Shown here one piece after another: positions 1,084 to 60,520 of a DNA stretch of 64,000 nucleotides; position 1 is the first letter of the stretch; each line of letters starts with the position of its first letter. The notes under the pieces were generated by a model, which did no database searches, was not told where the DNA came from, and saw only the letters and a program-made list of their open reading frames with translations. A program made the translations under genes and the position numbers. The DNA comes from Myrmaecium sp. VS I D KN 1. Its lineage: Eukaryota > Ascomycota > Dothideomycetes > Valsariales > Valsariaceae. The stretch covers positions 186,001 to 250,000 of the forward strand of contig JADQAV010000005.1 of assembly GCA_019775845.1 (NCBI GenBank), given 5' to 3'.

Positions 1084-4000
1084 ATGAGCCTCATTCCTGA
1101 TCCCACTGCGGATCTGCACTGGTCAGACTATCGAGGAGCGATTCACGAAATATTCTCCCAGAATGCGCAAAAGCATCCAGATAGGTGTATGTGCCTTCAA
1201 TCCCTCAGCAAATAGACAATGAGCTGATGCCTCGGCAGTATGCGTGGTCGAAACCGCCTCAAGCACATCCCCCCGGCGCGAATTTACATACCGACAGATC
1301 GATGAGGCCACCAATATCCTGTCACACCACTTGATTCAGAACGGCATAGAACGAGGCGATGTCGTTATGGTCTACTCTTCGCGGAACGTGGACTTAGTCA
1401 TAGCCATAATGGGTGTGCTGAAAGCAGGGGCGACGTTCTCTGTCATCGATCCGCAATACCCTCCAGATCGCCAGATTATTTATCTGGATGTTGCGCAACC
1501 CAAGGGCCTGATAATATTGCAGACGGCTACGGAAGAGGCGGGCCCCTTGTCCGACTCCGTTGACACATACATAAAGGAGAAGCTCCAGTTGAAGGTTACG
1601 GTGCCTGGATTGAGACTTCAAGATAATGGACAACTTGTTGGCGGGGCTACACAAGGCTCTGGAGACTGCCTTGAGCCGCAAAAGCCGCTAGCGACCAAGT
1701 TCCCTGGAGTGATCGTTGGCCCGGACTCCACTCCTACCTTGAGCTTCACTAGTGGAAGTGAGGGGAGACCAAAGGGGGTCAAGGGAAGACATTTCTCGCT
1801 CGCGTATTACTTCCCGTGGATGGCAGAGACCTTCGGCCTTTCCGAAAACAGCAGGTTTACTATGCTCAGTGGTATCGCGCACGACCCGATCCAGCGCGAT
1901 ATCTTCACCCCCTTGTTCCTCGGAGCGCATCTCTTAGTCCCATCCCGTGAGGACATTCAACACGAAAAGCTTGCCGAGTGGTTCGCAAGAGAGCAACCTA
2001 CGGTTACCCATCTTACCCCTGCTATGGGGCAGATCCTCGTAGGCGGCGCGATGGCCCAGTTCCCTTCTCTGAAATCTGCATTCTTCGTTGGTGATATCCT
2101 CATCAAGAGAGACTGCAGGAGGCTTCAAGAGCTAGCAGTAAATGTCAGCATCGTCAATATGTATGGCACTACTGAGACCCAACGTGCAGTCAGTTATTAT
2201 AAGATCCCGAGCCGTGCGGAAAATCCGCAATTCCTGGATCATCTTGGTGACGTCATCCCTGCTGGTAAGGGTATGAAAGACGTCCAACTACTAATCGTCG
2301 ACCGTGAAAACCGCAACAGAATATGCGACATTGGTGAGAGCGGGGAGGTGTATGTCCGAGCCGGTGGTCTCGCGGAAGGCTACCTTGGTCTGGACGATAT
2401 GACTGCCCAGAAGTTCTTGTACAACTGGTTTGTCGACAATGACAAGTGGGTCAAAGAGGACGAAGAACGCGTACGGGCTCAGGGTGGACCCGAGCCATGG
2501 CGTCAGTTTTACAAAGGCCCTCGGGATCGCATGTACCGGTCCGGTGATCTGGGAAAGTACATGGAAGACGGCAATGTCAATGTCACTGGACGGGTTGACA
2601 ATCAGGTCAAAATCCGCGGGTTCAGAATCGAACTTGGGGAGATTGACACCCACCTGTCTCAACACCCCTTGGTTCGCGAGAATGTGACGCTCGTCAGGCG
2701 AGATAAAGATGAGGAGCCTACACTCGTCTCATACGTCGTTCCGGAAATGAAGAAGTGGGCGCAATGGCTTGAGGAGAAGGGCTATTCTGAACCGGCAGAA
2801 GACAACACCAAAACCCCAATGATCGGTATGCTGAAGCGGTTCAAGATGCTCCGTGATGATGTGCGGGAAACGTTGAAGACTAAACTGGCTTCCTATGCCG
2901 TTCCTACCATGATCATCCCTATGTTGAGATTTCCTTTAAATCCTAACGGTAAGATTGACAAGCCCGCTCTGCCATTCCCTGAACCGTGGGAGCTGGCAGC
3001 TGCCGCAGGTCGGAGTTTGTCTCAGAGTGCACCCCAGCTCAGCGAGACCGAGAAGAAGCTTGCCGAGATCTGGGCGTCTCTCATCCCGCGCCTTAGTGTC
3101 AGAATGATTGATCCCGATACCCGCTTTTCTGATGCTGGGGGTAACAGTATCACGGCCCAGCAATGTCTCTTCAAGATCAGGCAGACATGGCAAGGCGTCA
3201 ACATCCCCATGCGGGCTTTCCGTGACCCGACGCTGCGTGAACTTGCCCAGGAGGTCGATCGCTCTCTTGATCCGATTGGTCTCATCTATTCTGGCGAACC
3301 TGATGGTCTGCCTGAGCAAGACGAGTCATACTCCAATGATGCCGTGGAGTTGATCAAGGAACTCCCACAAAGTTTCTCAACCGCAGAACTGCCGTCTAAA
3401 CCGGTCTTCTTCCTGACAGGTGCCACCGGCTTCTTGGGCGCCTTTATCCTGCGAGATCTACTCCAGCGCGGCGTGAAGGTGTTTGCCCACGTGCGCGCCA
3501 AAACCGCGGCTGATGCGCTCAACCGTATTGTTCGCACATGCAAGGCATATGGAATTTGGAATGATTCTTGGACTGATCAGATTGTGTGCGTGACTGGCGA
3601 TTTGGAGAAGCCAAATCTGGGTGTTACGCCTGATGTATGGGACCGGCTGGCAGAGGAGGTTGATGTGGTCATTCACAACGGAGCTCGCGTTCACTGGGTA
3701 CGTTTTCAACATCGCTATTTCACGTTGATTCAACGCTGATCGGAATAGGTCCTTCCGTACACAAACCTGCGCGCCGCTAATGTGCTCAGCACGTTGGCAG
3801 CGATTTCTCTGTGCGCAACTGGGAAACCCAAGCAGCTCGGATTTGTGAGCTCTACCTCCACACTCGACTCGGAGCATTACATCCATCTCTCTGAGAAGGG
3901 CGAGCTTGTGCAAGAGTCGGATGATCTGGAAGGCTCTCGTAAGACACTCAGCACTGGCTATGGTCAGTCTAAGTGGTCTAGCGAATATCTCATTAGAGAA

Positions 4001-4681
4001 GCCCGTCGGCGCGGCCTGCGCGCCATCTCCGTTCGTGCAGGATATGTGCTTGGTGATCCCGAAACCGGAACCACCAACACGGATGACTTCTTGATCCGTC
4101 TTTTGAAGGGCTGTATTCAGCTTTCCGCCCGTCCCGCCATCCAGAATACCATCAACATGGTTCCTGTCCCACATGTGGCGCGCCTTGTCGTTGCGGCTGC
4201 TCTTCATCCAGACCACACTGTCGCTCAGGTCACGGCGCACCCACGCCTTACGATGGAGCAGTACACTGCTTGCCTTGCTACTTACGGGTACAACGTGCCC
4301 CTACTGGAATATTCTGAATGGGCCAAGCGGCTGGAAGCGTACGTGGAACAGGGGGACAAGCAGGAGGAGCACGCCCTCCTGCCTCTGTATCACATGGTGA
4401 CCACGTCATTGCCTGAGGACAGCAAGGCGCCCGAGATGGACGATCGCAATGCCGCTGATGTCTTGAAGAAGGATGCCAAGGAGACGGGAGAGGACTGGAG
4501 TAAGGGTTCGGCAGTCACTGAGGAAGCGGTGGGGATTTACCTGAGCTATCTCATCCAGCTCGGATTCCTGCCTCCGCCGAGCACGCAGGGCGAGAGACCA
4601 CTGCCAGAGGTCACAATTGATGAGGTGCAGAGGGCAGCATCAAGCGGCATTGGCGGAAGAGGTGGTGCGGGTGCTAAGTAG
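1084..4681 (+). CDS. LYS2: L-2-aminoadipate reductase (alpha-aminoadipate semialdehyde dehydrogenase), lysine biosynthesis
   Basis: It activates alpha-aminoadipate with ATP, loads it on a phosphopantetheine arm and reduces it with NADPH to the semialdehyde. Three exons: 1084-1186, 1239-3697, 3749-4681; introns are 52 and 51 bp with CTGAT branch-like sites; the sum is 3495 nt (1164 aa). Visible parts are the adenylation motif [16 protein letters not shown] near residue 203, YRSGDLGKY and [20 protein letters not shown] near 465-490, the carrier site GGNSIT near 669, the reductase NADP motif LTGATGFLG near 759, and YGQSK near 924. Yeast Lys2 is 1392 aa with the adenylation region starting near residue 230; here the ATG lies directly before that region ([10 protein letters not shown]), so the N-terminal condensation-like part is absent. 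A phosphopantetheinyl transferase is needed in trans. Confidence 0.97.
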
Positions 4682-25181: not shown

Positions 25182-26318
25182 CTACAACCTTGCTCGCTCA
25201 ATCCTGTTGCCGTCCTCGTCAAACTCGATCTTCTTCCCGGTCCTCAAGCTCTCCTGGAGCGCGCAGCCGATCTTGACCGCCTGGACGGCTCCGCTGAGCT
25301 CGAAGGGGAGCGGCTTGTCGTCCAGGCAACACTCGGTGAACTCGTTGGCCTCGGTCACGAAGGCGTACTCGAACCGGCCGTAGTAGTGCGGCGGGATCTC
25401 CCGCCGGATACCGGACGGCTCGGACACCTCGACGAGGTTCTGCAACGGGTTCGCGTTGACGGCGATCTTTCCCTTGGTGCCGATGATCTCGGTCATGTCG
25501 TGTTGGCCGGCAGCCATCATGCGGCTGCTGTAGAAGTACGCGATCTTGTCGCCCCAAAACTCGACCACGCCCACGCCGTTGTCGACGTCGCCGTGCTTGG
25601 CCAGGTCGGGCTCCACGGCCGTGATCCCGACGGCGACCACGCTCTTGACCTTGCTGTCCGGGCCGAAGAACCACAGGGCCAGGTCGATGTCGTGGATGTT
25701 GCAGTCGACGAAGATGCCGCCGGAGAACTGGGCGTACTGGACGAAGAAGCCGGACGGGTCGAGCTTGTCGCACGTCTGCGAGCGGAGCACGGACGGCTTC
25801 CCGATGTCGCCGCGCTGCTGCCGCTCGTACGCGTCCCGGTAGCTCGCGTCGAAGCGGCGAGAAAAGCCGCACAGGACCTTGAGATGGGGTTTCGTTTTGG
25901 CAGCGTCGACGACGCTTTGAGACTGGAACACAACGTGCTCGTCAGCAATTGGCTTCATTAATCGGGACCATGGAAAAACGGTCGGGCGTACAATCTCGAC
26001 GTCCGTGCTCAGCGGCTTCTCGCAGAGCACATGCTTGTCCGCGCGAATGGCCTTGATCGCCTGCTCCGCGTGCACCGTGGTCACGGTGGCGATCACCACC
26101 GCCTCCAGCCCGGGATGCCGGAGCATCTCGTCGTAGTCCTTGTAGAGCGTCACCCCCCACGGCTCGAGCAGCTCGCGCGCCCGCGCCAGCTCGGCGTCGT
26201 CGGGCGAGAAGGCGGCCACGAGCTCGGCGCGCGGGGTCCGGTTCAGGAAGTGCAGCGCGTGCCGCATGCCCATGCGCCCGAGGCCGGAGCAAGCCACCTT
26301 GAGACGACGGGGAGCCAT
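25182..26318 (-). CDS. Gfo/Idh/MocA-family dehydrogenase, inositol 2-dehydrogenase-like (355 aa)
   Basis: An NAD(P)-dependent sugar or cyclitol dehydrogenase. Two exons, 26318-25992 and 25922-25182, are split by a 69-bp intron (GTACGC donor, GCTGAC branch, CAG acceptor) that lies in frame without a stop; read through, it would insert 23 residues. Rossmann motif VACSGLGRMGMRHAL at residues 8-22, HVLCEKPLSTD near 100, and the catalytic DCNIHDIDLALWFFG near 178. The C-terminal half has the family's open beta sheet (GTKGKIAVNANP, YAFVTEANEFTECCLDD). Sequence resembles inositol 2-dehydrogenases, which oxidise myo-inositol to scyllo-inosose, but family members vary in substrate. It lies in the same orientation as the zinc dehydrogenase 622 bp upstream, at the left end of the inositol/glucuronate cluster. 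Confidence 0.9.
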   Translation of the reverse strand: MAPRRLKVACSGLGRMGMRHALHFLNRTPRAELVAAFSPDDAELARARELLEPWGVTLYKDYDEMLRHPGLEAVVIATVTTVHAEQAIKAIRADKHVLCEKPLSTDVEIVRPTVFPWSRLMKPIADEHVVFQSQSVVDAAKTKPHLKVLCGFSRRFDASYRDAYERQQRGDIGKPSVLRSQTCDKLDPSGFFVQYAQFSGGIFVDCNIHDIDLALWFFGPDSKVKSVVAVGITAVEPDLAKHGDVDNGVGVVEFWGDKIAYFYSSRMMAAGQHDMTEIIGTKGKIAVNANPLQNLVEVSEPSGIRREIPPHYYGRFEYAFVTEANEFTECCLDDKPLPFELSGAVQAVKIGCALQESLRTGKKIEFDEDGNRIERARL

Positions 26319-26940
26319 TGTGCGAGGAGAGTGGAAATGCGTGTATCCGTACGGAGCGAAGGGGTCACCGGCGGTGGCGGTGAGTCTGGCTGAGAAGGAG
26401 AGGGAGGGAAGCCGTTATCGTTCCTGTCTCGAGGTGGAAACACCGCCTAGAAGGAGGGAGAGAGCGGTGCCAGACCGAAGGGGTTCGGGCGGCTGTGAAG
26501 CTCGAGGAGAATCTTATATTGGGATGGCCATGGGGTAGAGGTGAGTATCCAATAGGAGGAGTGGTGTAACGGAGCAGCTGTAGCTTTTACAGCTGAGCGG
26601 TGTGGAGGCCGCACGAGGCAACTTTCGGCGAGGTCTTCTGCCGCCCGGCGTGCCGGACTGAAGAACAACTTCCCAGTTACCGTAACGGGATGGCCGTTCG
26701 GGCCATCTCCACCCGAACCAGGCACGCCAGGCACAGGTTCCCCTCGTTTTCGGTAACTGCAAGGGTCAGGGATAGCAGGGGTCCGACAGCTCTGATCTGG
26801 GGTAATCTACTACTCTGCGGTGCTGACTGGATGCACCGTCTTTGGTCTTCCAGCATCACGCGCCTTGCGTCAAATATATACAGCATGCTATCGAATGTCG
26901 CTCACATCCCATCATTCAAGTCGATCCCTGTCGCCCTCTC
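26319..26940. promoter_or_regulatory. Promoter region of the Gfo/Idh gene
   Basis: 622 bp between the zinc dehydrogenase 3' end and the Gfo/Idh start. The part next to the ATG is GC-rich. No strong repeated motif is seen. Confidence 0.35.
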
Positions 26941-28271
26941 TTACAGCTGTGCCTTCTCATCGCCTAGTTGAAACATCACCTTCAGCACAAGGTTCCCCTC
27001 CTCGTCTTTCGTCTTACTCGCCATCTCGAAGGCCTTCTCAATGTTCTCAAATCCTTTGTATCGGTGGGTGATGAGCTTGTTGAAATCCGGATAGTCGGGG
27101 CCCGTCTTGGACACGACCTCGATTCCGGTGGGGTATGTGTTGGCATATCGAAAGACGCCGATCAAGTCGACCTCGCGGAGGGCTGCGGCGGAGATGGGGA
27201 GCGTCTGGATGGGATTACCCATCCCGATCAGCATGACCTTGCCGCCCGGGCGGGTGGCCTGAAGACTATCAGTGCTGACTTCCTGATGGAACATTGTCGG
27301 TGGAACTTACATAAATCGCTGTTTGCAAGCATGAAGGAACCCCTGTGCACTCAAAGACCACATCCACTTCGCCGACGGGTTTTCCTGTTGCTCCTTCGAC
27401 TAAGCCAATCTCTGCCGCCGTGCTCTTCGCAATCTCCAAGTTCTCCTCTATCGTCTGACCCCGCTTCATGGGGACTGTGAAGGCCTTGTGGGCGAAGTGG
27501 TTGTCCACCGCGAAGTTCACTCTGCCAGAGTCGATGTCCGCGATGACCACGGTGCCAGCACCGGATATCTTAGCCATCGCAGCTACAAGGAGGCCGACGG
27601 CACCCGCGCCAAACACCAACACCGTCGCTCCGGGCCTCAGATCCGCTCTCCGGGTCCCATGAATGGCCACGCTCAACGGCTCCAAGATCGCTCCGAGGTC
27701 CAGTGAAACATGTTCGGGCAGCCTGAGCCAGTCAGCCTTCGAAGCGCACAACCAAAACAACGCGGGAGCTTCACGCACTTATGACACCAGGCCGCCGGGT
27801 GGTTGATCCGATCCTGCAGCGTGCCCTGCGCGTGCGGGAACGCCTTCGCGGAGCTGCGGAACTTCATGCCCTTGCAGATGTTGTACCGGCCCTCGGCACA
27901 CCGCGCGCAGTCGCCGCACGGCAAGCCCACCTCCAGCGCGACCTTGTCGCCGACCTGGAAGTCGGACACGGCCGAGCCCACCGCCACCACGACCCCGGCC
28001 GACTCGTGGCCCAGGGAGAGAGGCTCCCGGCAGAGGATGTCGCCGTTGCGGTAGTGGTGGTAGTAGTGCAGGTCGGAGCCGCAGAGGCCCGTGGAGCGGA
28101 CGGCGACTTGGAGCTCGGTTGGTGCGGGCGCGTCGAGCGTACGGTCTTCCTGGATGGGTGGTGGTTAATGGCTCAGAGCTGTTGTTGGGGCCGGGTGAGT
28201 TGGCTTACGATTCTCAGATCTTTTGCGCCGTGAAGCACGGAGGCTTTGATCTGCGACGGTTGTACAGACAT
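26941..28271 (-). CDS. Zinc-dependent polyol dehydrogenase (sorbitol/xylitol/L-idonate dehydrogenase type)
   Basis: A medium-chain NAD-dependent dehydrogenase of 387 aa. Four exons keep phase: 28271-28209, 28149-27779, 27722-27311, 27258-26941; introns are 52-59 bp. The start is MSVQPSQIKASVLHGAKDLR. Catalytic zinc ligands lie in GLCGSDLHYY (near residue 44) and GHESAG; the structural zinc site is CGDCARCAEGRYNIC; the nucleotide fold shows VLVFGAGAVGLLVAA. This is the class that holds sorbitol, xylitol and L-arabinitol dehydrogenases, and also the L-idonate 5-dehydrogenase of the fungal glucuronate route (GluD in Aspergillus niger). Divergence from an SDR and linkage to MIOX favour the idonate role, but substrate cannot be read from sequence. 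Confidence 0.93.
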
Positions 28272-28923
28272 GATCGCTGTGCGGGGAAGATGGGGATCAG
28301 GTTCACAGTGCCAGTTGGGTATATAGCGCAATGGGGTGAAGTCAACACCAATTGAAGAAGCAGAAGGAATTGGGAGAGAGAGAGAAAGGAAAAGGGGACT
28401 GGCCGCAAAGGAACTGAGAAGTGACTTCCTGTGGAGGTCTCGGATGTCAATATTTCCCTCACGGCGAATCTCCAGTCTCCAGACGCTCTGCTGTCATCCC
28501 ATCCATCCCCGCCAGGTCCTGCCAGTTTCCCCCCCGCGATCGGCGTTTGAGCAATCGCCGAAGCGGGCGGGGGTGGGGCAGGTCCCCCCGCTCCATCCCG
28601 CACTCCCCCCCCCTCATTCTGCCCCTCCATTGCCTAGCAAATCCAGCAAAACCGGCCGGTGCCAGCGCCAATTTGGCCGCGGGCCGACCGTACGATGTCA
28701 TGGATCCCTGAGTGTTGAGGCGGGCGCGGTGGCCGGCAACTGACTTTCTCTCGTCCGGTCATCACGCTCTCCTGTCTTCTTTCACTTCCTTCCGGTCCTT
28801 TGCATATGATTGCACGTTCAGCGTGTCGAACAGCTTGAGCAGCAGCTTTGCTCTCATTCCTCCTCCACTTTCTTTCCTTCTTCCTCTCTTCTTCTCTCTC
28901 TCAAACGAGCGCATCACCGCATC
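28272..28923. promoter_or_regulatory. Shared divergent promoter, zinc dehydrogenase / SDR
   Basis: 652 bp between divergent starts. Around 28555-28610 several GCGGGG/GTGGGG strings occur on both strands, which match the SYGGRG core of the carbon repressor CreA. The region is GC-rich, so chance matches are likely. A CT-rich leader (28860-28910) precedes the SDR start. Confidence 0.4.
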
Positions 28924-29815
28924 ATGCCATCCTCTTCGCCCTCGATACAGCAGCTGTTCTCTCTGCAGGGTCAGACTGCCCTCGTCACTGGCGGCACGCG
29001 CGGCATTGGCCAGGCTATGGCAGTCGCGCTCGCCGAAGCCGGTGCAGACATCCTCCTCGTCCAGGTATGTACCAAGTTCACACTCTCTGCTCATTGACAA
29101 TGGACCTCGAGATCTGACGTAGCCCTTCTTCTTCTCCTTCCACCAGCGTGACGCCTCCAACCAACACACCAAATCCCTCATCGAAGCCCTCGGCCGGAAA
29201 TGCACCATCTACACCGCGGACCTCGCCTCCGCCGCAAGCGTCGCAGCGCTAACCCCTACCATCCTCGCCGACGGCCACCGGATCGCCATCCTGCTCAACT
29301 GCGGCGGCATCCAGCGACGGCACCCCGCCGACCAATTCCCCACCGCCGACTGGGACGCCGTCCTGCAAGTCAACCTCACCAGCGTCTTCACCCTCTGCCG
29401 CGACGTCGGCGCGCACATGCTCGCCTCCCCCCCGCTCGACCCCGCCGCCGCCGGCCACCGACGCGGCAGCATCATCAACGTCGCCTCGCTGCTCTCCTTC
29501 CAAGGCGGCATCACCGTGCCCGCCTACGCGGCCGCCAAGGGCGGCGTCGCCCAGCTCACCAAGGCCCTCAGCAACGAGTGGGCCGCCCGCGGCGTGTCCG
29601 TCAACGCGATCGCGCCCGGCTACGTGGCGACGGATATGAATGAGGCGCTCATGCGGGATGAGCGGCGCGCGGCGAGCATTCTGGAGCGCATCCCTGCGGG
29701 GAGATGGGGCAGCCCGGAGGATTTTAAGGGCGCGGTGGTTTTCTTGGCGAGTCGGGCGAGTGCGTATGTGAGTGGGGAGGTCTTGACGGTGGATGGGGGG
29801 TGGATGGGTCGGTGA
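28924..29815 (+). CDS. Short-chain dehydrogenase, gluconate/ketogluconate type (269 aa)
   Basis: A classical SDR of the KduD/gluconate 5-dehydrogenase group. Two exons, 28924-29064 and 29147-29815, flank an 82-bp intron (GTATGT donor, TCTGACG branch, CAG acceptor). Motifs: [10 protein letters not shown] near residue 22, NCGG in place of the usual NAG near 100, INVASLLSF near 156, YAAAKGG near 173 and the cofactor-loop PGYVATDM. The C-terminus ends with the tetramer-forming [11 protein letters not shown] typical of the group. In A. niger the glucuronate route ends with an SDR that reduces 5-keto-D-gluconate to D-gluconate (GluE). Placement next to MIOX and a polyol dehydrogenase makes that role likely, though 2-deoxygluconate dehydrogenases look similar. 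Confidence 0.92.
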
Positions 29816-30828
29816 GAGGGCGGACTGTCTGGGAGGGATAAGGGGGAGACGAGGCGGAGTGGCTTAGCTGGGAACTTTAGTCCATTGCGATTTTCGCATT
29901 TTGTTTTCCGAACTATAGATATCTGTTTCAAAAATCTAACATGAGCGCTTTTTAGCGTAGTTATCTTATGTACGTAGATGAAATATTTCCTCCCGCTTGA
30001 TGGGGGACGGGAAGAATTCACAAGGCTGACCCCTTCCCAGATTCCCCCACTCGTTCGCTCGGAACCTCCTGCCTTTATCACCCCGAAGAAGAAACAAAAA
30101 GCGGAAGAACGAACACAGAGGGGCAAGTTCCGCCTACATACCCCATAGTTAGTACTTTATCAGGTGAAGCCTGCAGTGGCCATGATTCGCAGCGAGCCTT
30201 ATGCATGGACCAATTTTTGCTTACTTTCCCGTCCTTCCTCCCCCCGGCGATCACCTTTCTTTCTTGCTTTTTGTCATACCCTGGGCGTACCCTGGGCGTC
30301 CCCCGGATTTTCTTCTTTTTTCTTGCTTTCCCGTCCTTCTAAATACTCAGTCTTGGTGGCCTGAAGAACTTAATCAGGTCAGAGAGCTGATTGACTGAGG
30401 GGGCTAAGTTCGGGTTGGACGTCAACCGATTCGGTATAGGGGTAGCGACTGAGATAGGAGGGGACATCGTGCTCCTTACCCCCTTTTTCAGGCGATGCTC
30501 ATGTGCAAGGCGAAGGGAGGGTAACGTCTTAGGGAGCAACTTATATCGTGTGAGGGACCATCGTTGATTCAGACGTATCGTGAGACGGGAAAAAAAAGAA
30601 GGAATCTGTATTCGTTCTTTCTAATAGGAAGTGACGGTGCGGGGTTTGGTTCGTGAGAGAGGGGATTATAAAGCATAAGGCACATTGTGATACATGGCAA
30701 GAAGAGAGAAAAACAACCGTAGTACATGGGCGTCATGAGATTCGTGAAACCAGAGAGGGGGAAGGGAGGAAGGTGGGAGGGTGGTTTTTCCAGCCCGCCG
30801 TGAGAAACACCAGAAGAAAGACATGCAA
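29816..30828. other. Intergenic, convergent 3' ends
   Basis: About 1 kb between the SDR and MIOX stop codons. It contains a perfect 2 x 11 bp tandem duplication (taccctgggcg, 30277-30298) and CT-rich runs. No gene seen. Confidence 0.4.
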
Positions 30829-31809
30829 TTACCACTTGATCTTCTTATCCTTGCCAAAGTACTCATCGATCAGCTCGAGGTAGTAAGGCTTAAGCTCGTC
30901 AGGCTTGGGCATGTCGTCGCTCTTGCTGTAGAGGTCGTACGGGTTGAAAGCCTTGACGGCCTCGAGCATGCGGCGGTCCTTGTCGTCCATGAGCCAGTGG
31001 TAGGCGCCGGCGTTGTGCCAGGGGTAGAAGGAGTGGTAGCGGATCATGGCGAGGGCCTCGTCCGGCAGGGTGGACTGGTCCTTGACGACGTGGTAGAGGT
31101 ACTCGTCGTGGCCCCAGGAGAGGAGGACGTGGTCGAGGCCGATCCCTTCGTGGTAGATGCCGTGCTTGGTCGAGTAGATGGGGTCGCGCGCGTCCGGGTT
31201 GGCGGCGAAGGTGTCGGCGTAGATGATGCGGTCGTCGAAGGCGCAGCCGACGGGGAAGGTGTCGCCGACGACGTCCCACTGGCCCTGGGCGTCGAAGAAG
31301 AAGAGCAGCTTGCCGAGGTCGTGGATGAGGCCGGTGAGCTGCATCCAGCGCGGCTTGCCGTCCCGCCGGATCGCCTCGGCCGTCTGGAGGAGGTGCTCGA
31401 TCTGGGAGAGCGCCGTGTCCGGGTCGGACTCGTCGATCAGCGTGTTCAGCCGCTCCATGGCCTCCCAGATGGTCATCTCCGCCCGCACCTTGCTGCGGAA
31501 CTGGTGCCGCGCCTTGAGGTTGTAGGCCACCGTCTGCTTCGCGTGCTGCTCCCGGTAGAAGTTCTTGACCCGGTCGCAGGCCTCCTCGTACTGCCGGAAC
31601 CGGCTCTTGTCCTTGTCGGCGTCGAACTGGGACTTCTCGTAGATGTCCTTGTCCGCCTTCTCGGCGGTGGTCTGCGTCGCCCGGATGGCGGCCTTCAGAA
31701 CGTTGACCTTGTCGATGTTATCCGAGGTCTCCTCCAGGGCCTGACCAGAACGGCGGTCCTCGAGGGTGTTTGCGGAAAGGGGAGCGTCATCGATAGCGCT
31801 CGGTGCCAT
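30829..31809 (-). CDS. mioA: myo-Inositol oxygenase (MIOX)
   Basis: A di-iron oxygenase that cleaves myo-inositol to D-glucuronate, the committed step of oxygenase-type inositol catabolism. It is a single exon of 326 aa. The start is the ATG before APSAIDDAPL; the frame extends 24 codons upstream only from a TTG. Family hallmarks: RQYEEACDRVKNFYREQH, HQFRSKVRAEMTIWEAMERL near residue 108, the HD-domain iron ligands in GLIHDLGKLLFFF near 161, GIYHEGIGLDHVLLSWGHDE near 217-236 and RYHSFYPWHNAGAYH near 253. Length matches animal and plant MIOX plus a disordered N-terminus. It is divergent from the aldo-keto reductase and central to the cluster. Confidence 0.96.
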   Translation of the reverse strand: MAPSAIDDAPLSANTLEDRRSGQALEETSDNIDKVNVLKAAIRATQTTAEKADKDIYEKSQFDADKDKSRFRQYEEACDRVKNFYREQHAKQTVAYNLKARHQFRSKVRAEMTIWEAMERLNTLIDESDPDTALSQIEHLLQTAEAIRRDGKPRWMQLTGLIHDLGKLLFFFDAQGQWDVVGDTFPVGCAFDDRIIYADTFAANPDARDPIYSTKHGIYHEGIGLDHVLLSWGHDEYLYHVVKDQSTLPDEALAMIRYHSFYPWHNAGAYHWLMDDKDRRMLEAVKAFNPYDLYSKSDDMPKPDELKPYYLELIDEYFGKDKKIKW

Positions 31810-32773
31810 GTTGTGTGCAGTGAAGGGATGATAAACAGATGAGTTCAGATATGAACTCGGGTATCTTGTATGAAGCAGCAAAAGTAGTGATGACTTGATA
31901 ACCTAGAATGGGGGTTCGAGAGAAGAGAAGCGATGAGGGAGAGGATGGAGTGAGTGAGTGAATGGTCGAGTCGAGGGAGCTTCGGGGGGATATTTGAATG
32001 CCACAGCCTCGCCTAGACTTAACAAGAACAGATCATGGCCGGAAGAAGCAAAAGTATAAACGTGATGGGTACAAGTATCAACCTGGTGCGGGAGCCACTG
32101 GCAGGTAGGCATCTCCTCCTCCCGTAGCTGGGTTGATCCTCGACTGGGGATACGGAAGGGCAATTCGGCAACCTTGGCGGCGGTTGGAACAGTCGGGGAT
32201 GGCATCTCGTCCAACCCGGGAGACGATACGATATCAGATAGCTTGGGGGTGGGGTTAGCCGAGGATTCGTCGGGGACTGGGGCGTGGGGTAGACTGGGGA
32301 AGAGTGGAGGAGGGAATCTTCGGCGGAAATTGCCCCAAACGGACGGGAGTGAAGCGGATTAGGTCATCCAGCCCGGCCTGCAGCAGCCACGAGGTGTGAG
32401 TGTGAACCACCGGCATCAGCCACACCCTCGGCTCTGTGCTCGGCTCTTCGTCAGTCCGGGGGCTGATGGCGCGAGGCGGGGCAGTACGGGGCAGATGCCG
32501 CCCGCCTCCACCCCGCCCTCCCTGGTCCGCCATACGCCGACGGAGTGCAATCGGGAAGGTGGAGAAGAGCAAGGTAGGAGGGGTTAATCGCTCGAAAGTA
32601 AACAGGCCTGAGGTACCTACGTACCGTATTCACATTCGCAAATCGGCCCGGAACACACCCTTCGATCAAAAAGGTTGCGGCCCCCCGCATCCCCCTTCCG
32701 CAGAATGCATCCTGCTCTCGCCAAGTTCATCCTCAAACGCACTCCCGAGAGCATCCTGCATCCCAAGCCCACC
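31810..32773. promoter_or_regulatory. Shared divergent promoter, MIOX / aldo-keto reductase
   Basis: 964 bp between divergent starts. Around 32475-32520 GCGGGG and CCCCGC strings again match the CreA core, as in the other divergent promoter of the cluster. Frames here (for example minus 31903-32214) are low-complexity and probably leader sequence. Confidence 0.4.
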
Positions 32774-33962
32774 ATGAACACGCCTTTCCCCCTCAACACC
32801 GGCGCCACGATCCCGGCGGTGGGGTTGGGCACCTGGCAATCGCCTCCCGGCGAGGTCAAGAATGCCGTCTACCACGCGCTCAAGGTCGGCTACCGGCACA
32901 TCGACTGCGCCTTCATGTATCAGAACGAGGACGAGGTGGGCAAGGGCATCAAGGAGGCCATCGACGCCGGCATCGTCAAGCGCGAGGACATCTTCATCAC
33001 CACCAAGCTGTGGTGCACCTACCACAGCCGCGTCGAGGAGGCTCTGGATTTGAGTTTGAGCAGACTCGGTTTGGATTACGTCGACCTCTATCTCATGCAC
33101 TGGCCCATTCCCATGAACCCCAAAGGTATTCTTCTGAGCTCAATCTTCCGTCTCTCTCTTCTCTCTTTCTTTCTCTTGGTCTCTCTGTCTACACAAAGCC
33201 TCCACCGCAAAGCCAGCCACCTAACAACCACCCCACACAGGCAACCACCCACTCATCCCCCGACTCCCCGACGGCTCCCGCGACCTGGACAAATCCTGGT
33301 CGCACGTGCGAACGTGGAAGGAGCTCGAGAAGCTCCCGGGCACAGGCAAAGCCAAAGCCGTCGGCGTGGCCAACTACTCGATCAAGTACCTCGAGGAGCT
33401 GCTGCCGGAGGCCAGCCTCGTCCCGGCCGTCAACCAGGTCGAGAACCACCCGCTCCTGCCGCAGCAGGACCTCGTCGACTTCTGCCACGCCAAGGGCATC
33501 CACGTCACCGCTTACTCGCCCCTTGGCAGCAATGACGCCCCCTTGCTGGCCGATCCGGATGTTCGCGAGCTTGCTGAGAAGCATAAGGTCGGCGCTGGCA
33601 CCATTCTCTTGAGCTACCATGGTAAGTCTCTCCTCACCTACCCCTGTGGTCCTCTCCTCTCCTCTCCTTGCTCCCTCGTACAGAACGAATATGATCTTGA
33701 AGCCGTAAGGGGGAAGCATAATGAGTTGGGAGCAAGAAGCATAGCGTAGACCCCTCACTAACCACATCCAACAACAGTCGCCCGCGGCAACTCCGTCCTC
33801 CCGAAATCCACCAAGCCCCACCGGATCGAGGAGAACAGCAAGATCATCCCGCTCGAGGAGGCCGACCTGCAGCTCCTCAACGCCATCCACCAAAAACGCG
33901 GCCTCCACCGGTTCGTCTACCCGGACTTTGGCGTCAACTTGGGCTTTCCCGACAAGCAGTGA
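32774..33962 (+). CDS. Aldo-keto reductase, candidate D-glucuronate reductase (305 aa)
   Basis: An NADPH-dependent aldehyde reductase of the AKR superfamily. Three exons, 32774-33125, 33241-33621 and 33778-33962, keep phase (introns 115 and 156 bp). Start [20 protein letters not shown] follows ACC-ATG; an in-frame ATG at 32705 would add 23 residues ([12 protein letters not shown]...), possibly a targeting peptide. The catalytic tetrad is visible: Asp and Tyr in [13 protein letters not shown] (near 42-47), Lys in TTKLW (near 77), His in LMHWP (near 109). The cofactor end reads [16 protein letters not shown] and the C-terminus FGVNLGF is typical of fungal glycerol/uronate reductases. In fungi such an enzyme reduces D-glucuronate to L-gulonate, the step after MIOX. 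Other aldehyde substrates remain possible. Confidence 0.93.
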
Positions 33963-36331: not shown

Positions 36332-36932
36332 TTATTCTCTGCCAAAGGAGTCAAAATCAGCCCGCAACCAGGCCCGTGGGAACGTTGCGAAAAAGGGAAA
36401 GAACTAAACCGGGGGATGGTACTTACAATAGAGATAGCGTCAGATCGCCGCGAATGCTAGCTTTGAGCTCGATCTCTACATCCAGATTTGCTTCGAGCTT
36501 CAGCTTGAGACCGTCCTGGTCATCCAGTTTGTTTTGACTCTCCTGCGGCTTCTGGTAGGGTTGGTTTGGGTTCGTCCCGCGCATCGGGATCTCTCCCCTT
36601 TGTGCACGGGCGTATGTTACTGGACCGTCCATGGAGGTGCTGTCGGGGCCGATACGTTCGAAAGGCTGCATGGACTTGAGCTCGCCATTCGCGTCGGCTT
36701 CCTCAAGAGCTTCGAGGCTATTCGTCTTCATGTATTTCCCCTCCTCCATGGCCTTCTGAATGCGTTGCCGGCGGGCTTTGCGAGACGCGGAACGCGAGCG
36801 GTTGGACTGTTGACCCGTCTCTCTTTTGTGTTGCTTGATGGCCTCCTCCTGCTTCTGCTGCTGCATAACCGTGCGGTGCTGGGGCATCTCGGTCTCCGAT
36901 CCGGTGTCAGACTCGTTTCCTTTCGCGGCCAT
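36332..36932 (-). CDS. Disordered protein with conserved C-terminal motif, paralogue A
   Basis: The ATG at 36932 begins MAAKGNESDTGSETEMPQH (the upstream TTG is not a start). The body is polar and basic (RSRSASRKARRQRIQKAMEE), ending in LKLKLEANLDVEIELKASI followed by RGDLTLSLL. The main exon runs to TAA at 36423-36425, but TTGTAAGT there is also a perfect donor. An 88-bp intron (36426-36339) with a GCTGAT branch and TTGGCAG acceptor would replace the stop and end the protein with Leu-Glu at 36332. The C-terminal block alternates hydrophobic and charged residues like an amphipathic strand. It is a paralogue of the gene at 37975-38685. Function unknown. Confidence 0.75.
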
Positions 36933-37974
36933 TGTGCGTGACAGTATCAACTATAATGGAGTATTCTGCAAGAGTTGAAAAGACGTCGAGGTTGAGAGGC
37001 TTGCGGAAGGAAAAGCACAAGGTGGTTGGGTAGTCGGGTGGTTACGAGAGGAAGAAGTACGTGGATCCCCAGCGAGAGAAGAGTAGGTAGGTGGTCAGGA
37101 TTCTGGTTCCATAGATTGGAAGAGCCTCATCGTGGAAGTTTCATCCGTGGGCAGCCACCGGGGCGAGCAAAAACAAGATTGATGCATGGCATGGCGTGTG
37201 AGGTTGCGTCTGGCAGGGCGGAGTACGGAATGAAGCGCCACCAAAACTTGGAAGGCCTCCCACACGCTGACATCATCGGCGTCCAGGGTCCGGATACCGC
37301 CGGCTACCTCAAGCAAGTCACTAAAAGGCACCTTAAGGTACCCGGAAACGCGTACCGGCACGCGCGTTCCATTGGAACCCTTCGGGTTGTAATTCCGCAC
37401 TAACGAATGTGCTTATTATTCTTCGTTCCTCGCAGGGATTTATAATGGTATATCAATGGCAAACAGGGGGCCGGAACAAGGGTTGGCCTGGTAGAACAGA
37501 GGCGGCGTACAAATAAGCCTCTAATACTTAGCAAGACCGACTGGATTGTACCATTGACCATTTTATCAATTTGAGGGATCGGACGTCATGAGGCAACGAG
37601 CAGGAGGACGGGCCCGGGCTGGATGTCGTCTCGCTAGGGACTGGCATGTGCACACCTCTTCTCTAATCACATGCTTAGTGAAGGTAGAGTAGTTCGGCGC
37701 CATCTGGAAAAGTGCTTGAGACAATTACTTTTCATTATACAAACAGATCCATGGAACAAGGTATTTGTGAAAAACTACATAGCATAACGCTCAAACACCA
37801 AAACGCCCCATATAATCACCAAGCGTACTCGTAACTGCGTCATATCTTCCTTCTCGGTAGAGAGCTGCCCAAACCAACTGCGATCAGAACATGCTGTGCA
37901 TTATGGCCGCCGTAGCTCAGTTCCTTCAGCACTGTCAGTATACAGCTTCCTCGTAGACTCTGCGGACAGGGGAC
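36933..37974. other. Intergenic stretch
   Basis: About 1 kb between the two paralogues: 5' flank of copy A and 3' flank of copy B. A plus frame at 37026-37403 (125 codons) has no recognisable motif. If the donor at the end of copy B is used, its last exon lies near 37930. Confidence 0.35.
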
Positions 37975-38685
37975 TTACAAAAGACCCAAAGTCAAATCGC
38001 CGTGAATCTTAGCTTTCAGCTGCACTTCAATGTCCAGGTTCAGCTCAAGACGCAAGCGGAGCTGTTCGTCCTTGTCATCATCGTCCTTCTTCTCGCCGCC
38101 GCCGGTCAAACCTCCGACTGCCTTGCCTGCGGTATCGCCGACCGTATTCACGGCGTTGCCGGCAGTGTTCTGAACCATATCGCCAGCGCCATTGACAAGC
38201 TCGCCGCCGGGAACATTCTCGGTGATCCCATCGAGCGGACCGCCGCCTTGCTTACCCTTCTGCCTCTGGCGCTGGCGGTTGCGGCGACCACCAGTGGCAG
38301 AGACGTCCGAGCGGGTGAGGGATTCGGTGTCGCTGTCGGGAATATTCCTCCTTCCACGGCCGCGTGAAGCACGGCGACGAGACTGGGACTTCTGGGGTTG
38401 AGGTGCAGGTTCTGGTTCAGACTCGCTCGCTTCAGCGCCGGCGTTGGCGTCCGCATCTTCAGCGCCGCCAGCATCAGCGTCACTCTCGGGGCTGGGTGTA
38501 GCTTCCGGAGTCGGCTGCTGCTCGGGTTGCTTCTTACTGCCGAGTTTCTTGGGCGCCTTCTTCTCCGTTTTCTTGCTCGAGCTTTGCGCACCGATTCCAC
38601 CATTCGCCTGGGCCTGACCCTGAGCCTGGCCTTGGCCCTGAGCGCCGATGGAGGACTGCTGCTCTTCGTTCGTGGTGTCGGCCAT
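37975..38685 (-). CDS. Disordered protein with conserved C-terminal motif, paralogue B (236 aa)
   Basis: ATG at 38685. The N-terminal two thirds are Gln/Ala/Glu/Pro-rich (GQGQAQGQAQANGG, SESEPEPAPQPQKSQ), then RRRASRGRGRR, a Gly/Asn/Val-rich segment with repeats (GDMVQNTAGNAVNTVGDTAG), and the same C-terminal block as its neighbour: LRLRLELNLDIEVQLKAKIH then GDLTLGLL. The stop TAA overlaps a perfect GTAAGT donor, exactly as in paralogue A. An acceptor TGACAG about 45 bp on could splice to a short basic tail. The pair is tandem, same strand, about 1 kb apart, so it arose by duplication with divergence of everything except the motif. I recall similar endings in other filamentous fungi but know of no function. 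Confidence 0.85.
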   Translation of the reverse strand: MADTTNEEQQSSIGAQGQGQAQGQAQANGGIGAQSSSKKTEKKAPKKLGSKKQPEQQPTPEATPSPESDADAGGAEDADANAGAEASESEPEPAPQPQKSQSRRRASRGRGRRNIPDSDTESLTRSDVSATGGRRNRQRQRQKGKQGGGPLDGITENVPGGELVNGAGDMVQNTAGNAVNTVGDTAGKAVGGLTGGGEKKDDDDKDEQLRLRLELNLDIEVQLKAKIHGDLTLGLL

Positions 38686-39614
38686 GTCTGTCTAGAGGAA
38701 ATGCAGGAGGAAGATGTAGGATGTTATCTGAAATGCTCGAGGACGTGAGACGATGAAGTATGTGTACAGGTACGGAGGCGAGTATGATACGGAAGACGAG
38801 ACGCGAGACAATGTAGAAGTTGAGAATTAAAAATGAGCAGGAACAGGTTTGTTTGAAAAGATGGAACGTGAGCTCACGGCAGACCCTGGTCGAAGCCGGA
38901 AACCGGATCCCTGTGCGTGACGCAAGGCCATCCACGCGCAACTCGGGAGTCTCCACCGAGCAACTGGCGCGGAAACCTGGCGACATCCTCGTTAGGTGTT
39001 GCTCCCCAGTTTTCGTGCCAGGCAGCGGAGCGTCAGGGACTTGCTAATCGGGTGCTGTGGCGGCCAGCCACGCCAGCCCTCGGCTCTCTTCAGCGCTCTT
39101 CAGCAGATTCCTTCGATCGCGTCGATGTCATCGCCCAGGGTTTGCGTCCTCGTCCGGCACCGGGCAAGGCGAGCAAAGGCAAGTGGATGTCAAAGGCCGG
39201 TTGGACCAGGGTTTAGACCGGTTTTTCTTGATTTCTCGCAGCGCGGACGGAGAAGCGCCCGTCGGGCGATGGATGCTCGGAGCCATTCTCATTTGTGGTC
39301 TGTCGCAGGCGAGTTTACCTTACACATCATTATGTTGTGTGGATACAACCAGTGAATAACACCTTGGGCGACCGCAGAAAATCAACATGTGAGAATGAAT
39401 GGGAGGTTTACAAAGGAGTACGAAGGAGTACGTGTGCGAGGACTTCTTTGCCTGACCGGTGATCGGGACCAGGAAGGGCCGTCGCACGGGAGACCCCGCC
39501 CAAACCTCCCGTAGGAGTGAGTACCAACGAACGGTCAGGTAAACAGCTCGAACCTCTTCGCAGCACCGCCGGCTAGCGTGCGTTCGCAGTCACAACAGCA
39601 ATCCGCACTTGAGA
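38686..39614. other. Intergenic stretch, divergent promoter
   Basis: About 930 bp between paralogue B and the DUF2470-like gene, which are divergent. An aaggagtacg repeat occurs twice near 39413-39432. No gene seen. Confidence 0.4.
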
Positions 39615-40395
39615 ATGGCGACGACCGAGGGTAGAGATGGGGAGGCAAAGAAGCGCATCATCAACCATATGAACGCGGACCACCAGGACTCCGTAAGGAC
39701 GCTGGAATGATGCACACCGTTTGCGACTGTGCTAATGGTGTACTAGGTTGCGAGATACCTGGAACACCACAAAGGCGTCTCATCCTACTCGGCCAGCTCT
39801 GCGCGGTTGACAGACATCGCGCTCGACAGCTTGACTATCAAGGCCGGCAGCAGCCAGTATCGGATCTCACTGGAACCTCCAATGGGTTCGTGGAAGGACG
39901 CACGTGAGCGCCTTGTTCAGATGGATCGCGACGCGCTTCGTGCACTGGACCGGAGCGATATCACTCTCAAGGAATATCGGGCGCCCAAGGGCTTTCACGC
40001 TGTGGTCTTTGCCCTGTGCTCGTTCGCGTACATTGCGAGCACAAGCCGCAACAACTGGCTCCCCGGTTCTTTGTTCTACGAAAGCCTCCGCCTCGGGCAG
40101 TTCCCTGGCTTCGCAAAGTTCGGATATGCCATCCAGCCTCTGGTTCTCTGGGGCATGCTGGCTATCCACATAGCGGAGGTGGCTATCCTGATCCGCACCA
40201 GATTGAGGAAATACAACGTCCCCCTTTTCACCAGGCTATGGTGGGCTTGGGTCTTATCATGCTTTATCGAAGGCTTTGGGGCCTTCCAAAGGTATGAGCG
40301 CAGCACATACCAACGACTACTGCATGCTAAATTTAAACAGGATCGATGCCATCATGGCTGAAGCGAGGCTCGAGAAAGAGAAGCGGGCGCATTGA
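39615..40395 (+). CDS. DUF2470-like plus TMEM254/DUF4499-like membrane protein (225 aa)
   Basis: Three exons, 39615-39692, 39747-40291 and 40341-40395, keep phase. The N-terminal ~105 residues resemble DUF2470, a split-barrel-like domain seen in haem-related proteins: RIINHMNADHQDS and LEHHKGVSSYSASSARLTDI then LDSLTIKAG. After a linker the protein carries three hydrophobic segments (FHAVVFALCSFAYIAST; FAKFGYAIQPLVLWGMLAIH; RLWWAWVLSCFIEGFGAF), the layout of small TMEM254-type membrane proteins, and a charged end ARLEKEKRAH. Likely an organelle or ER membrane protein. Enzymatic activity is unknown; a haem link is inferred only from the domain name. Confidence 0.85.
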
Positions 40396-57961: not shown

Positions 57962-58580
57962 CTCGTCTCAAACTGTATAGAACTCAAGGTCTTTGACTGC
58001 GCGGCAACGCAGAATCTGGGGGAGATCTGCAAGCATTTATACAAGGTGTCGCATCCCTCATGGGAACCTAAGCTCCGGGAATCTCCCTCCATATCAAGTG
58101 ATCATTGGAGTGATTTCTTCGAAGCACACCAACAGGCGCAAGGCGGTCTTCAACTGCCGAGCCTTCTTGTGGGGCAACGTATTCCGCGGGGTTAACCTGG
58201 AGAAGTGGCGCTTTACCCCAGACGGGCCCCTCAAGTAAAACCGGAGGCGTTCAGTGACGAGCGACGAGGCTGCAAGTGGAGCCGATTGCTGGGGGTAAGG
58301 TGGGAAATACGCCGAGGCCGCGGTTTTTCCTCCAATCGTACCCGCGCAACCCCAAGTTGCCCCAAGGTCTTGCGGGAAAACTCGCAAATCGATTCGAGGG
58401 TGCCAGTCATGTAAGGACATGCACTGAGCTCTGAAATCCGGTGGGGGGAAGACTGTGTCCCGGTGATCTGGAAACGTGGGAGCCCACGAGGACTCCGAGA
58501 AGGCCTTCTTCAGGACAAAAGATCTCTGGTTCTTCGCTCCTCTCTTTATCCAGTCACTATCCTACAGTATTACAAGCGGC
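57962..58580. promoter_or_regulatory. Shared divergent promoter, sugar transporter / GH51
   Basis: 619 bp between the two starts. Several GTGGGG/CCCCAC-like strings (near 58170 and 58440) match the CreA core loosely. A conserved XlnR or AraR site could not be picked out by eye. Confidence 0.4.

Positions 58581-60520
<1,940 letters not shown>

What the first reader, a model, noticed from the sequence alone, without database searches (positions are those of the whole stretch)
25182..33962. A five-gene myo-inositol / D-glucuronate catabolic cluster around MIOX
Seen: Gfo/Idh dehydrogenase, zinc polyol dehydrogenase, KduD-like SDR, MIOX and an AKR are contiguous, with no foreign gene between, and arranged as two divergent pairs plus one. 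Known: in Aspergillus niger, inositol goes to glucuronate (MIOX), L-gulonate (AKR), 2-keto-L-gulonate, L-idonate, 5-ketogluconate (sorbitol-dehydrogenase-type GluD), D-gluconate (SDR GluE). Inferred: four of the five genes fit steps of that route and the fifth may act on inositol. No gulonate dehydrogenase, 2-ketogulonate reductase, gluconokinase, transporter or regulator gene is in the block.
Basis: partly seen in the sequence, partly recalled or inferred. Interest (0 to 1): 0.75.

Follow-up and report, generated by a model that had tools for sequence, protein, structure and literature searches.

The report
Fungal inositol and glucuronate gene block
Five neighbouring genes in a fungus look like a small set for eating the sugar alcohol inositol by way of glucuronic acid; four fit steps of a known fungal route and the fifth looks like a bacterial-type inositol dehydrogenase, so the block is mostly a new arrangement of known parts.

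Summary
Window 25182-33962 carries five intact genes that splice cleanly into a Gfo/Idh dehydrogenase (A), a sorbitol-dehydrogenase-type zinc dehydrogenase (B), a KduD-like SDR (C), MIOX (D) and an aldo-keto reductase (E). B/C and D/E are divergent pairs; A follows B on the same strand. No other gene was found inside. MIOX is certain. [quoted passage not shown] niger GluF and a cofactor signature suggesting NADPH. B and E fit L-idonate 5-dehydrogenase and hexuronate reductase by family only. New here: A belongs to a second type of dehydrogenase whose bacterial relatives lie directly behind iolG in 21 of 22 distinct loci, so it is more likely an inositol enzyme than a glucuronate enzyme; it ends in a peroxisomal-type tail (-ARL). 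The two middle steps (L-gulonate oxidation, 2-keto-L-gulonate reduction) were not found here. No fungal genome could be searched, so synteny is untested. Verdict: a plausible new variant of a known pathway, of moderate interest.

The parts
25182..26318 (-). Gene A: Gfo/Idh/MocA dehydrogenase of the 'second' inositol-operon type (exons 25992-26318, 25182-25922; in-frame 69-nt intron 25923-25991); 355 aa; K101-D182-H186 triad; C-terminal extension ending -ARL (PTS1-like)
26319..26940 (.). 622-bp gap between the 3' end of B and the start of A (promoter region of A)
26941..28271 (-). Gene B: sorbitol-dehydrogenase-type zinc dehydrogenase, candidate L-idonate 5-dehydrogenase (exons 28209-28271, 27779-28149, 27311-27722, 26941-27258); 387 aa; acidic end of beta-2 (D207/D209) suggests NAD+
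28272..28923 (.). 652-bp shared promoter region of B and C
28924..29815 (+). Gene C: KduD-like SDR, candidate NADPH 5-keto-D-gluconate reductase (exons 28924-29064, 29147-29815); 269 aa; S161-Y174-K178; ends GGWMGR, as A. niger GluF ends GWMGR
29816..30828 (.). 1013-bp gap between the convergent 3' ends of C and D, no gene found
30829..31809 (-). Gene D: myo-inositol oxygenase, intron-free, 326 aa; ten iron and substrate residues of mouse MIOX (recalled) checked and kept
31810..32773 (.). 964-bp shared promoter region of D and E; 12 SYGGRG (CreA-like) sites against 8.6 expected, weak
32774..33962 (+). Gene E: aldo-keto reductase, candidate NADPH D-glucuronate reductase (exons 32774-33125, 33241-33621, 33778-33962); 305 aa; D44-Y49-K78-H109 tetrad; alternative start at 32705

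Best explanation
The block is a catabolic set for inositol through D-glucuronate. D (MIOX) opens myo-inositol to D-glucuronate (shown by family and by its active-site residues). E reduces it with NADPH to L-gulonate (inferred from family). L-gulonate is converted to L-idonate by two enzymes encoded elsewhere; the gene for the first of these is unknown in the A. niger pathway. B oxidises L-idonate with NAD+ at C5 to 5-keto-D-gluconate and C reduces that with NADPH to D-gluconate, so that B and C together invert C5 (inferred; C is better supported than B). A is an inositol dehydrogenase. The most economical role is interconversion of scyllo-inositol, or another isomer, and myo-inositol through the 2-keto sugar, which would feed other isomers to MIOX; it may be peroxisomal (inferred from the -ARL tail).
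For: MIOX: Pfam 419.5 bits over profile positions 1-249 of 249; the two solved sequences matched are inositol oxygenases (best E 4.5e-70); H139, H163, D164, H234, H259, D292 and D129, K167, S260, K296 kept. C: the published A. niger gluF primers and guide RNA translate to MSAAVA, ASLFSL and GWMGR-stop; C has QLFSLQGQ and GGWMGR-stop, 269 against 265 aa; R26 in the Gly motif and Q47-R48 at the end of beta-2 suggest NADPH, as for GluF. A bacterial SDR 53% identical to C and ending GGWMGR lies beside a zinc dehydrogenase and an enolase-superfamily gene. B: best of 23 NCBIfam models is L-idonate 5-dehydrogenase (196.7 bits). Two proteins annotated L-idonate 5-dehydrogenase are among the 10 plasmid hits listed of 1730, and the one whose neighbourhood was read sits with a 2-hydroxyacid dehydrogenase, an SDR and 6-phosphogluconate dehydrogenase. 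B has the NAD-type acidic residues; GluE is strictly NAD+. E: AKR tetrad and NADPH-binding residues kept; best 60 of 165 solved matches include aldose and aldehyde reductases; T. reesei Gar1 reduces D-glucuronate to L-gulonate and yeast Gcy1 reduces D-galacturonate. A: best PDB matches are inositol dehydrogenases, 4mkx/4mkz and 4n54 (E 2.8e-54 and 4.4e-54), 4n54 being named a scyllo-inositol DH of L. casei in PMC5969746. Relatives lie 9-274 bp behind iolG on the same strand in 21 of 22 distinct loci, and a further iol gene is held in 19 of 22. The tree puts A on the side of these and not of IolG (IolG group one side of a branch in 100% of 200 bootstrap trees).
Against: Two of the six steps were not found in the block or in the 78 other ORFs scanned. 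In A. niger the gar1-type AKR was not induced on D-glucuronate and the induced reductase, GaaA, is of another family, which weakens E's assignment. B is not singled out: its PDB scores are higher to ketose reductase and sorbitol dehydrogenases (240.5, 238.7, 237.9 bits), L-arabinitol 4-dehydrogenase (229.2) and xylitol dehydrogenase (229) than to an L-idonate 5-dehydrogenase (140.9), it misses the L-idonate cut-off (196.7 of 469), and its ends do not match the A. niger GluE primers (MTVNST......ESGDD), which is inconclusive. A is not needed for the MIOX route, misses the IolG equivalog cut-off (256 of 355 bits), has Q249 where IolG has Tyr and most relatives His, and is a long branch whose exact place the tree tool calls unsure. 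A peroxisomal A would sit apart from enzymes without such tails. The three promoters share no 9-mer. No fungal synteny could be tested.
Confidence: 0.6

Rival explanations
1. A shorter route: B oxidises L-gulonate itself at C5 to D-fructuronate and C reduces that to D-mannonate, which a dehydratase elsewhere takes to 2-keto-3-deoxy-D-gluconate. D, E, B and C would then be four consecutive steps with no gap.
For: L-gulonate to D-fructuronate to D-mannonate is shown in Haemophilus influenzae by enzyme assays, knockouts and labelling (passages of PMC5788505). The reading needs no unknown L-gulonate 2-dehydrogenase. A relative of C ending in the same six residues lies next to a zinc dehydrogenase and an enolase-superfamily protein in a Rhodobacteraceae plasmid.
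Against: In A. niger, loss of gluF makes 5-keto-D-gluconate accumulate on D-glucuronate, so the fungal route with a GluF-like SDR runs through L-idonate. B scores higher to L-idonate 5-dehydrogenase (196.7 bits) than to PRK10083 (138.2; recalled as a YjjN/RspB-type model), and 140.9 for 6dkh (L-idonate 5-dehydrogenase) against 110.8 for 4ilk (RspB). The dehydrogenase beside the C relative is only 30% identical to B, and its enolase-superfamily neighbour scores best as talarate/galactarate dehydratase, below cut-off. No mannonate dehydratase was found in the ORFs scanned.
Confidence: 0.12
2. [quoted passage not shown]
For: The gene for this step was unidentified in the 2017 paper and in a 2026 paper. 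A is the only enzyme of the block without an assigned step and belongs to a family of secondary-alcohol dehydrogenases.
Against: A's bacterial relatives lie in inositol operons. Its best solved relatives are inositol dehydrogenases. The tail suggests a different compartment.
Confidence: 0.1
3. A chance or loosely related neighbourhood: MIOX beside broad-specificity polyol and aldehyde oxidoreductases (for example sorbitol or xylitol dehydrogenase and glycerol dehydrogenase) with separate roles.
For: B and E belong to broad families and their best solved relatives have other substrates. No motif common to the three promoters was found. The gar1-type AKR of A. niger is not induced on D-glucuronate.
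Against: Five of five genes in 8.8 kb fit sugar, inositol or sugar-acid redox chemistry, against 2 oxidoreductases among the 12 other Pfam-identified genes of the window. Two divergent shared promoters. A and D, from unrelated families, both point to inositol on independent evidence.
Confidence: 0.15

Closest known systems
Fungal D-glucuronate pathway of Aspergillus niger (GaaA, unknown step, GluC/GluD, GluE, GluF, gluconokinase; GluC, GluD, GluE and GluF now named GurA, GurB, IddA and KgrA), PMC4870679, PMC5306355, PMC5814732, PMC13158570
   Same: Three candidate steps match in reaction (hexuronate reduction, L-idonate 5-dehydrogenase, 5-keto-D-gluconate reductase); the SDR shares the published end residues of GluF; a divergent gene pair with a shared promoter is used in both.
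   Different: In A. niger the described divergent pair is gluD-gluE (2-hydroxyacid dehydrogenase plus an alcohol dehydrogenase, 455 bp); here the pairs are B/C and MIOX/AKR, MIOX and an inositol-type dehydrogenase are in the block, and no 2-hydroxyacid dehydrogenase was found. The induced A. niger reductase GaaA is not an AKR. The parts read do not describe MIOX as clustered with these genes.
Bacterial inositol (iol) operons with a second Gfo/Idh gene behind iolG (for example Lautropia, L001)
   Same: Gene A is 41-44% identical to the second dehydrogenase in the loci (L007 aside) and 37-50% in those.
   Different: The fungal block uses MIOX ring cleavage instead of the IolE/IolD/IolB/IolC route; no iol gene other than the A homologue was found.
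Bacterial L-idonate/gluconate clusters (for example Paracoccus sp. MA plasmid, L047)
   Same: SDR, 2-hydroxyacid dehydrogenase and L-idonate 5-dehydrogenase (37% to B) sit together, by annotation the same chemistry as the end of the fungal route.
   Different: Contains the 2-hydroxyacid dehydrogenase and a TRAP transporter; no MIOX in the stretch read; its SDR is only 37% identical to C.
Peroxisomal myo-inositol dehydrogenase of Entamoeba histolytica (PMC8629394)
   Same: A Gfo/Idh inositol dehydrogenase in a eukaryote with a C-terminal PTS1 tripeptide.
   Different: There PTS1-dependent import is shown; here the tail is only a sequence match, and relatedness of A to the Entamoeba enzyme was not tested.

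Membership tests
Myo-inositol oxygenase (PF05153) | Full-length MIOX domain above the curated cut-off | tested here: met
   419.5 bits against 25, profile 1-249 of 249
Myo-inositol oxygenase (PF05153) | Di-iron ligands and substrate residues of mouse MIOX | tested here: met
   H139, H163, D164, H234, H259, D292; D129, K167, S260, K296 present, read from the alignment to 2huo; which mouse residues are ligands is recalled
IolG inositol 2-dehydrogenase (TIGR04380 equivalog) | Score above the equivalog cut-off | tested here: not met
   256 bits against 355; 29-30% identity to three IolG, 41-43% to the neighbouring second enzymes
[quoted passage not shown]
   K101, D182, H186; invariant in 20 of 20 IolG and 22 of 22 second-type sequences aligned
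[quoted passage not shown]
   iolG directly upstream in 21 of 22 distinct loci; a further iol gene held in 19 of 22
[quoted passage not shown] mainly H, R or K = myo/scyllo) | tested here: inconclusive
   A has A-G-Q: YGY is absent, but the basic marker is absent too (classes from PMC9603128)
L-idonate 5-dehydrogenase (PRK09880 / A. niger GluE) | Score above the curated cut-off | tested here: not met
   196.7 bits against 469, though the best of 23 NCBIfam models
L-idonate 5-dehydrogenase (PRK09880 / A. niger GluE) | Orthology to A. niger GluE | tested here: inconclusive
   Only the published primer ends were at hand; they do not match
[quoted passage not shown]
   LFSL near the N-terminus, GWMGR at the C-terminus, 269 against 265 aa, R26 and Q47-R48; the full GluF sequence was not compared, so orthology is not shown
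KduD (TIGR01832) | Score above the equivalog cut-off | tested here: not met
   306.1 bits against 338.85
Hexuronate reductase of the aldo-keto reductase family | AKR catalytic tetrad and NADPH-binding residues | tested here: met
   D44, Y49, K78, H109; K254, S255, R260, E263, N264 (residues recalled)
Hexuronate reductase of the aldo-keto reductase family | Activity on D-glucuronate | not testable with these tools
A. niger-type D-glucuronate gene cluster | 2-hydroxyacid dehydrogenase gene paired with gluE | tested here: not met
   No 2-hydroxyacid dehydrogenase Pfam match in the five genes or the 78 other ORFs scanned

The most novel reading that the evidence does not exclude
The block encodes a gap-free or nearly gap-free inositol route that is new for fungi. 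Either A is the long-missing L-gulonate 2-dehydrogenase of the fungal D-glucuronate pathway, or B and C take L-gulonate directly through D-fructuronate to D-mannonate, which would make D, E, B and C four consecutive steps and bypass L-idonate.
Probability: 0.18. Interest if true: 0.7.

Novelty: new variant of a known kind. Interest (0 to 1): 0.42.

Why it matters
If right, it ties inositol oxygenase physically to the fungal glucuronate route, shows a eukaryote keeping a bacterial-type inositol dehydrogenase beside MIOX, and gives a short list of genes in which to look for the one step of the fungal D-glucuronate pathway that has no gene. Five searches of the held open-access library bear on whether such a cluster is in print (2, 20, 9, 20 and 15 papers listed, of 2, 73, 9, 40 and 49 that matched). 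Judged by title and start of abstract, no listed paper describes a fungal gene cluster around inositol oxygenase; the lists were capped and most subscription papers are outside the library.

Tried and rejected
Promoter motifs: no 9-mer is shared by the three intergenic promoters; B/C and D/E share one 11-mer and no 12-mer. CreA-like SYGGRG sites are mildly in excess (B/C 10 against 5.4, reached by 8 of 200 shuffles; D/E 12 against 8.6, 26 of 200; the A promoter has 3 against 4.9). CGG-N-CCG pairs are mildly in excess before A (12 against 5.9, 13 of 200) but not clearly in B/C (8 against 5.9, 63 of 200) or D/E (9 against 11.2). CCNCCAA occurs twice in D/E (0.7 expected, 29 of 200). All too weak to claim regulation.

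Regulators, transporters and missing enzymes: no Zn2Cys6 or C2H2 pattern in six frames. The patterns are insensitive: they miss sites split by introns, and the transporter pattern missed the transporter that Pfam finds. Four hits to a 2-hydroxyacid dehydrogenase pattern and one short GRxGR-type hit were judged spurious; the pattern hit at 40142-40219 lies in a 129-aa ORF that was not among those scanned with Pfam, nor were the ORFs of the hits at 32158 and 48633. Pfam on the 78 other picked ORFs found a sugar transporter at 56.4 kb and an amino-acid permease at 44.7 kb. No tRNA (bacterial settings) and no Rfam match.

IolM (scyllo-inosose 3-dehydrogenase) for B: 143.4 bits, below the L-idonate model; held less likely.

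DNA similarity of the block to plasmids: only four short matches in the KduD region. MIOX in plasmids: three hits of 34-59% identity, and the one neighbourhood read (H16) shows no matching cluster. Neighbourhoods of an unannotated KduD-like hit and a pectin-type KduD added nothing.

Structure prediction and fold search were not run: the open question is substrate, which a fold would not settle.

On checking, confidence in the main reading was lowered from 0.65 to 0.6 and the loose-neighbourhood rival raised from 0.12 to 0.15, because the A. niger gar1 result had been left out.


Full report
What was given. No whole genome is held for the window. Spliceosomal introns of 52-156 nt and neighbours such as DNA polymerase eta, an aminoadipate reductase and Mus7/MMS22 fit a filamentous fungus; the species was not identified.

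Observation. All five gene models were rebuilt with GT...AG introns and give unbroken proteins of 355, 387, 269, 326 and 305 aa. The layout is A and B in tandem on the minus strand, B and C divergent over 652 bp, C and D convergent over 1013 bp, D and E divergent over 964 bp. Of ten ORFs scanned, nine lie in the gaps or overlap the genes and one lies at 37 kb; none has a Pfam match. Third-position G+C of the five is 0.77-0.94, each above at least 6 of the 8 neighbours scored (the neighbours were scored as unspliced ORFs).

Surroundings. Six frames hold 267 ORFs of at least 90 aa; one search picked 85 of them by length and third-position bias with limited overlap. Seven are pieces of the five genes and the other 78 were all scanned. 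They hold 12 further genes: aminoadipate reductase (two ORFs), an LSM protein, an SDR, DNA polymerase eta (left neighbour of the block), DUF2470, GAS2, amino-acid permease, Mus7, sugar transporter (56.4 kb), arabinofuranosidase (59.5 kb), Rpb3 and calcipressin. No 2-hydroxyacid dehydrogenase, kinase or transcription factor was found among them. Genes cut into short exons, or in ORFs not picked, could be missed.

MIOX (D). 419.5 bits over the whole profile; the two solved sequences matched are inositol oxygenases; ten iron and substrate residues kept (their roles are recalled).

SDR (C). NCBIfam puts it nearest KduD but below the cut-off (306.1 of 338.85). The published A. niger gluF primers and guide RNA translate to MSAAVA and ASLFSL at one end and GWMGR at the other, and GluF has 265 aa; C has QLFSL and GGWMGR and 269 aa. 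The two solved KduD-type enzymes aligned end in GGWLAR. The NADPH-type signature also agrees with GluF, which is strictly NADPH-dependent. A relative from a Rhodobacteraceae plasmid (53%, same last six residues) sits beside a zinc dehydrogenase and an enolase-superfamily gene. Of 13 plasmid records with close relatives of that protein, one is annotated 2,5-didehydro-3-deoxy-L-galactonate 5-reductase, again a 5-keto sugar-acid reductase.

Zinc dehydrogenase (B). Among 23 NCBIfam models L-idonate 5-dehydrogenase is best (196.7 bits; cut-off 469), but the best solved relatives are ketose-reductase and sorbitol-type enzymes. Of 1730 plasmid records matched, the ten listed are eight Deinococcus dehydrogenases (37-40%) and two L-idonate 5-dehydrogenases (37%). 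The Paracoccus one lies with an SDR, a 2-hydroxyacid dehydrogenase, a TRAP transporter and 6-phosphogluconate dehydrogenase. L-idonate is therefore a reasonable but unproven substrate.

AKR (E). Aldose-reductase-like, with no solved relative standing out among the best 60 of 165 shown; the 2,5-didehydrogluconate reductase models of NCBIfam score below cut-off (213.1 of 425 and 158.6 of 327). A likeness to the yeast Gcy1/Gar1 branch is recalled, not computed. Papers report that Gar1 reduces D-glucuronate and Gcy1 D-galacturonate. Against this, the A. niger gar1 homologue was not induced on D-glucuronate, whereas gaaA, which is not an AKR, was; deletion of gaaA did not abolish use of D-glucuronate, and a second, unknown reductase was inferred.

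Gfo/Idh (A). The best solved relatives are inositol dehydrogenases; 4n54 is called a scyllo-inositol DH of L. casei in PMC5969746. One scan of prokaryote genomes gave 7 loci, of which the partial 28% match L007 was left out; the plasmid collection gave L008; a search of 300 genomes from the order of G001, the genome of Lautropia locus L001, gave matches at E 1e-50 or better in 16. Of 23 loci examined, L040 holds the same DNA as L002 and was dropped. In 21 of the remaining 22 an iolG gene (59% or more identical to that of L001) ends 9-274 bp upstream on the same strand; the exception is L043. In 19 of 22 a further iol gene (iolB, iolC/J, iolD or iolE) is held; L004 and L030 are cut by contig ends, and L008 has none by this test. 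In L001, NCBIfam cut-offs are met by iolD, iolE, iolB, iolG and mmsA; iolC/J, cut by the locus start, is below its cut-off. A is 41-43% identical to the second enzyme and 29-30% to IolG in L001, L005 and L008. The tree places A among the second-type proteins (the split from IolG is starred, 100/100); A is itself a long branch, its nearest fork is 94/86, and the tool warns that its exact place is unsure. A keeps the K-D-H triad, has Ser at the end of beta-2 like 22 of 22 second-type proteins (Asp in 19 of 20 IolG, the other being a gap), and has Q249 where the second type has His in 18 of 22 and IolG has Tyr in 20 of 20. PMC9603128 ties Asp or Glu at this beta-2 position to NAD+ and Ser or Thr to NADP+, so A's cofactor is open. 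A runs 12-15 residues beyond three bacterial C-termini and ends -ARL, a strict PTS1 match by the rule quoted; none of the other four ends in a strict match. A peroxisomal inositol dehydrogenase is known in Entamoeba.

How it would work. myo-Inositol to D-glucuronate (D), to L-gulonate (E), to 2-keto-L-gulonate (gene unknown), to L-idonate (2-hydroxyacid dehydrogenase elsewhere), to 5-keto-D-gluconate (B), to D-gluconate (C). A would bring other inositol isomers in through the 2-keto sugar. Shown: the gene structures, the families and the operon context of A's relatives. Inferred: all substrates other than that of MIOX, the compartment of A, and the joint use of the five genes.

Rivals. The two bold readings are that A is the missing L-gulonate 2-dehydrogenase, and that B and C work directly on L-gulonate (L-gulonate to D-fructuronate to D-mannonate, shown in H. 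influenzae). Neither is excluded. The first is weakened by A's operon kin, the second by the A. niger gluF phenotype and by B's scores.

Literature, as seen. PMC5306355 (parts 1-3 of 5), PMC5814732 (parts 1-2 of 3), PMC8622349 (abstract, outline and passages), PMC8629394 (passages and section 12); passages only of PMC4870679, PMC6353982, PMC13158570, PMC9192788, PMC6827314, PMC9603128, PMC5969746, PMC5788505, PMC6540932, PMC12167027 and PMC6419801. The naming corrections come from the first two, from PMC4870679 and from PMC13158570.

Limits. No fungal sequence collection was at hand, so conservation of the block and orthology to A. niger proteins remain untested beyond the published primer ends. 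No probability for the clustering was computed; the only control is the window itself (2 oxidoreductases among the 12 other Pfam-identified genes).

Noticed in passing
window 36426-36950 (-) and 37978-38691 (-): Two small low-complexity ORFs end in very similar peptides (...LDVEIELKASIRGDLTLSLL and ...LDIEVQLKAKIHGDLTLGLL); they look like neighbouring paralogues. No Pfam match.
   Followed up: partly
window 1223-4678 (+): Aminoadipate-reductase-like gene (AMP-binding, phosphopantetheine, reductase domain) whose frame changes near 3737-3748; an intron or a frameshift was not told apart.
   Followed up: no
window 56445-60517: A sugar transporter (-) and an alpha-L-arabinofuranosidase C-terminal domain (+) lie about 2 kb apart, 22-26 kb from the block.
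   Followed up: no
window 25185-25193: Gene A ends in -ARL beyond the end of its bacterial relatives, a possible peroxisomal targeting tail; gene B ends in -AQL, which fits only a relaxed rule.
   Followed up: partly
L044 3873-6797: Rhodobacteraceae plasmid operon: enolase-superfamily protein, zinc dehydrogenase and an SDR 53% identical to gene C with the same last six residues, near a TRAP transporter.
   Followed up: partly
L001-L006, L008, L028-L039, L041, L042: A second Gfo/Idh dehydrogenase, below the IolG cut-off in the two scanned (L001, L005), sits directly behind iolG in these loci; Ser replaces the NAD-type Asp in 22 of 22 second-type sequences examined, L043 included.
   Followed up: yes
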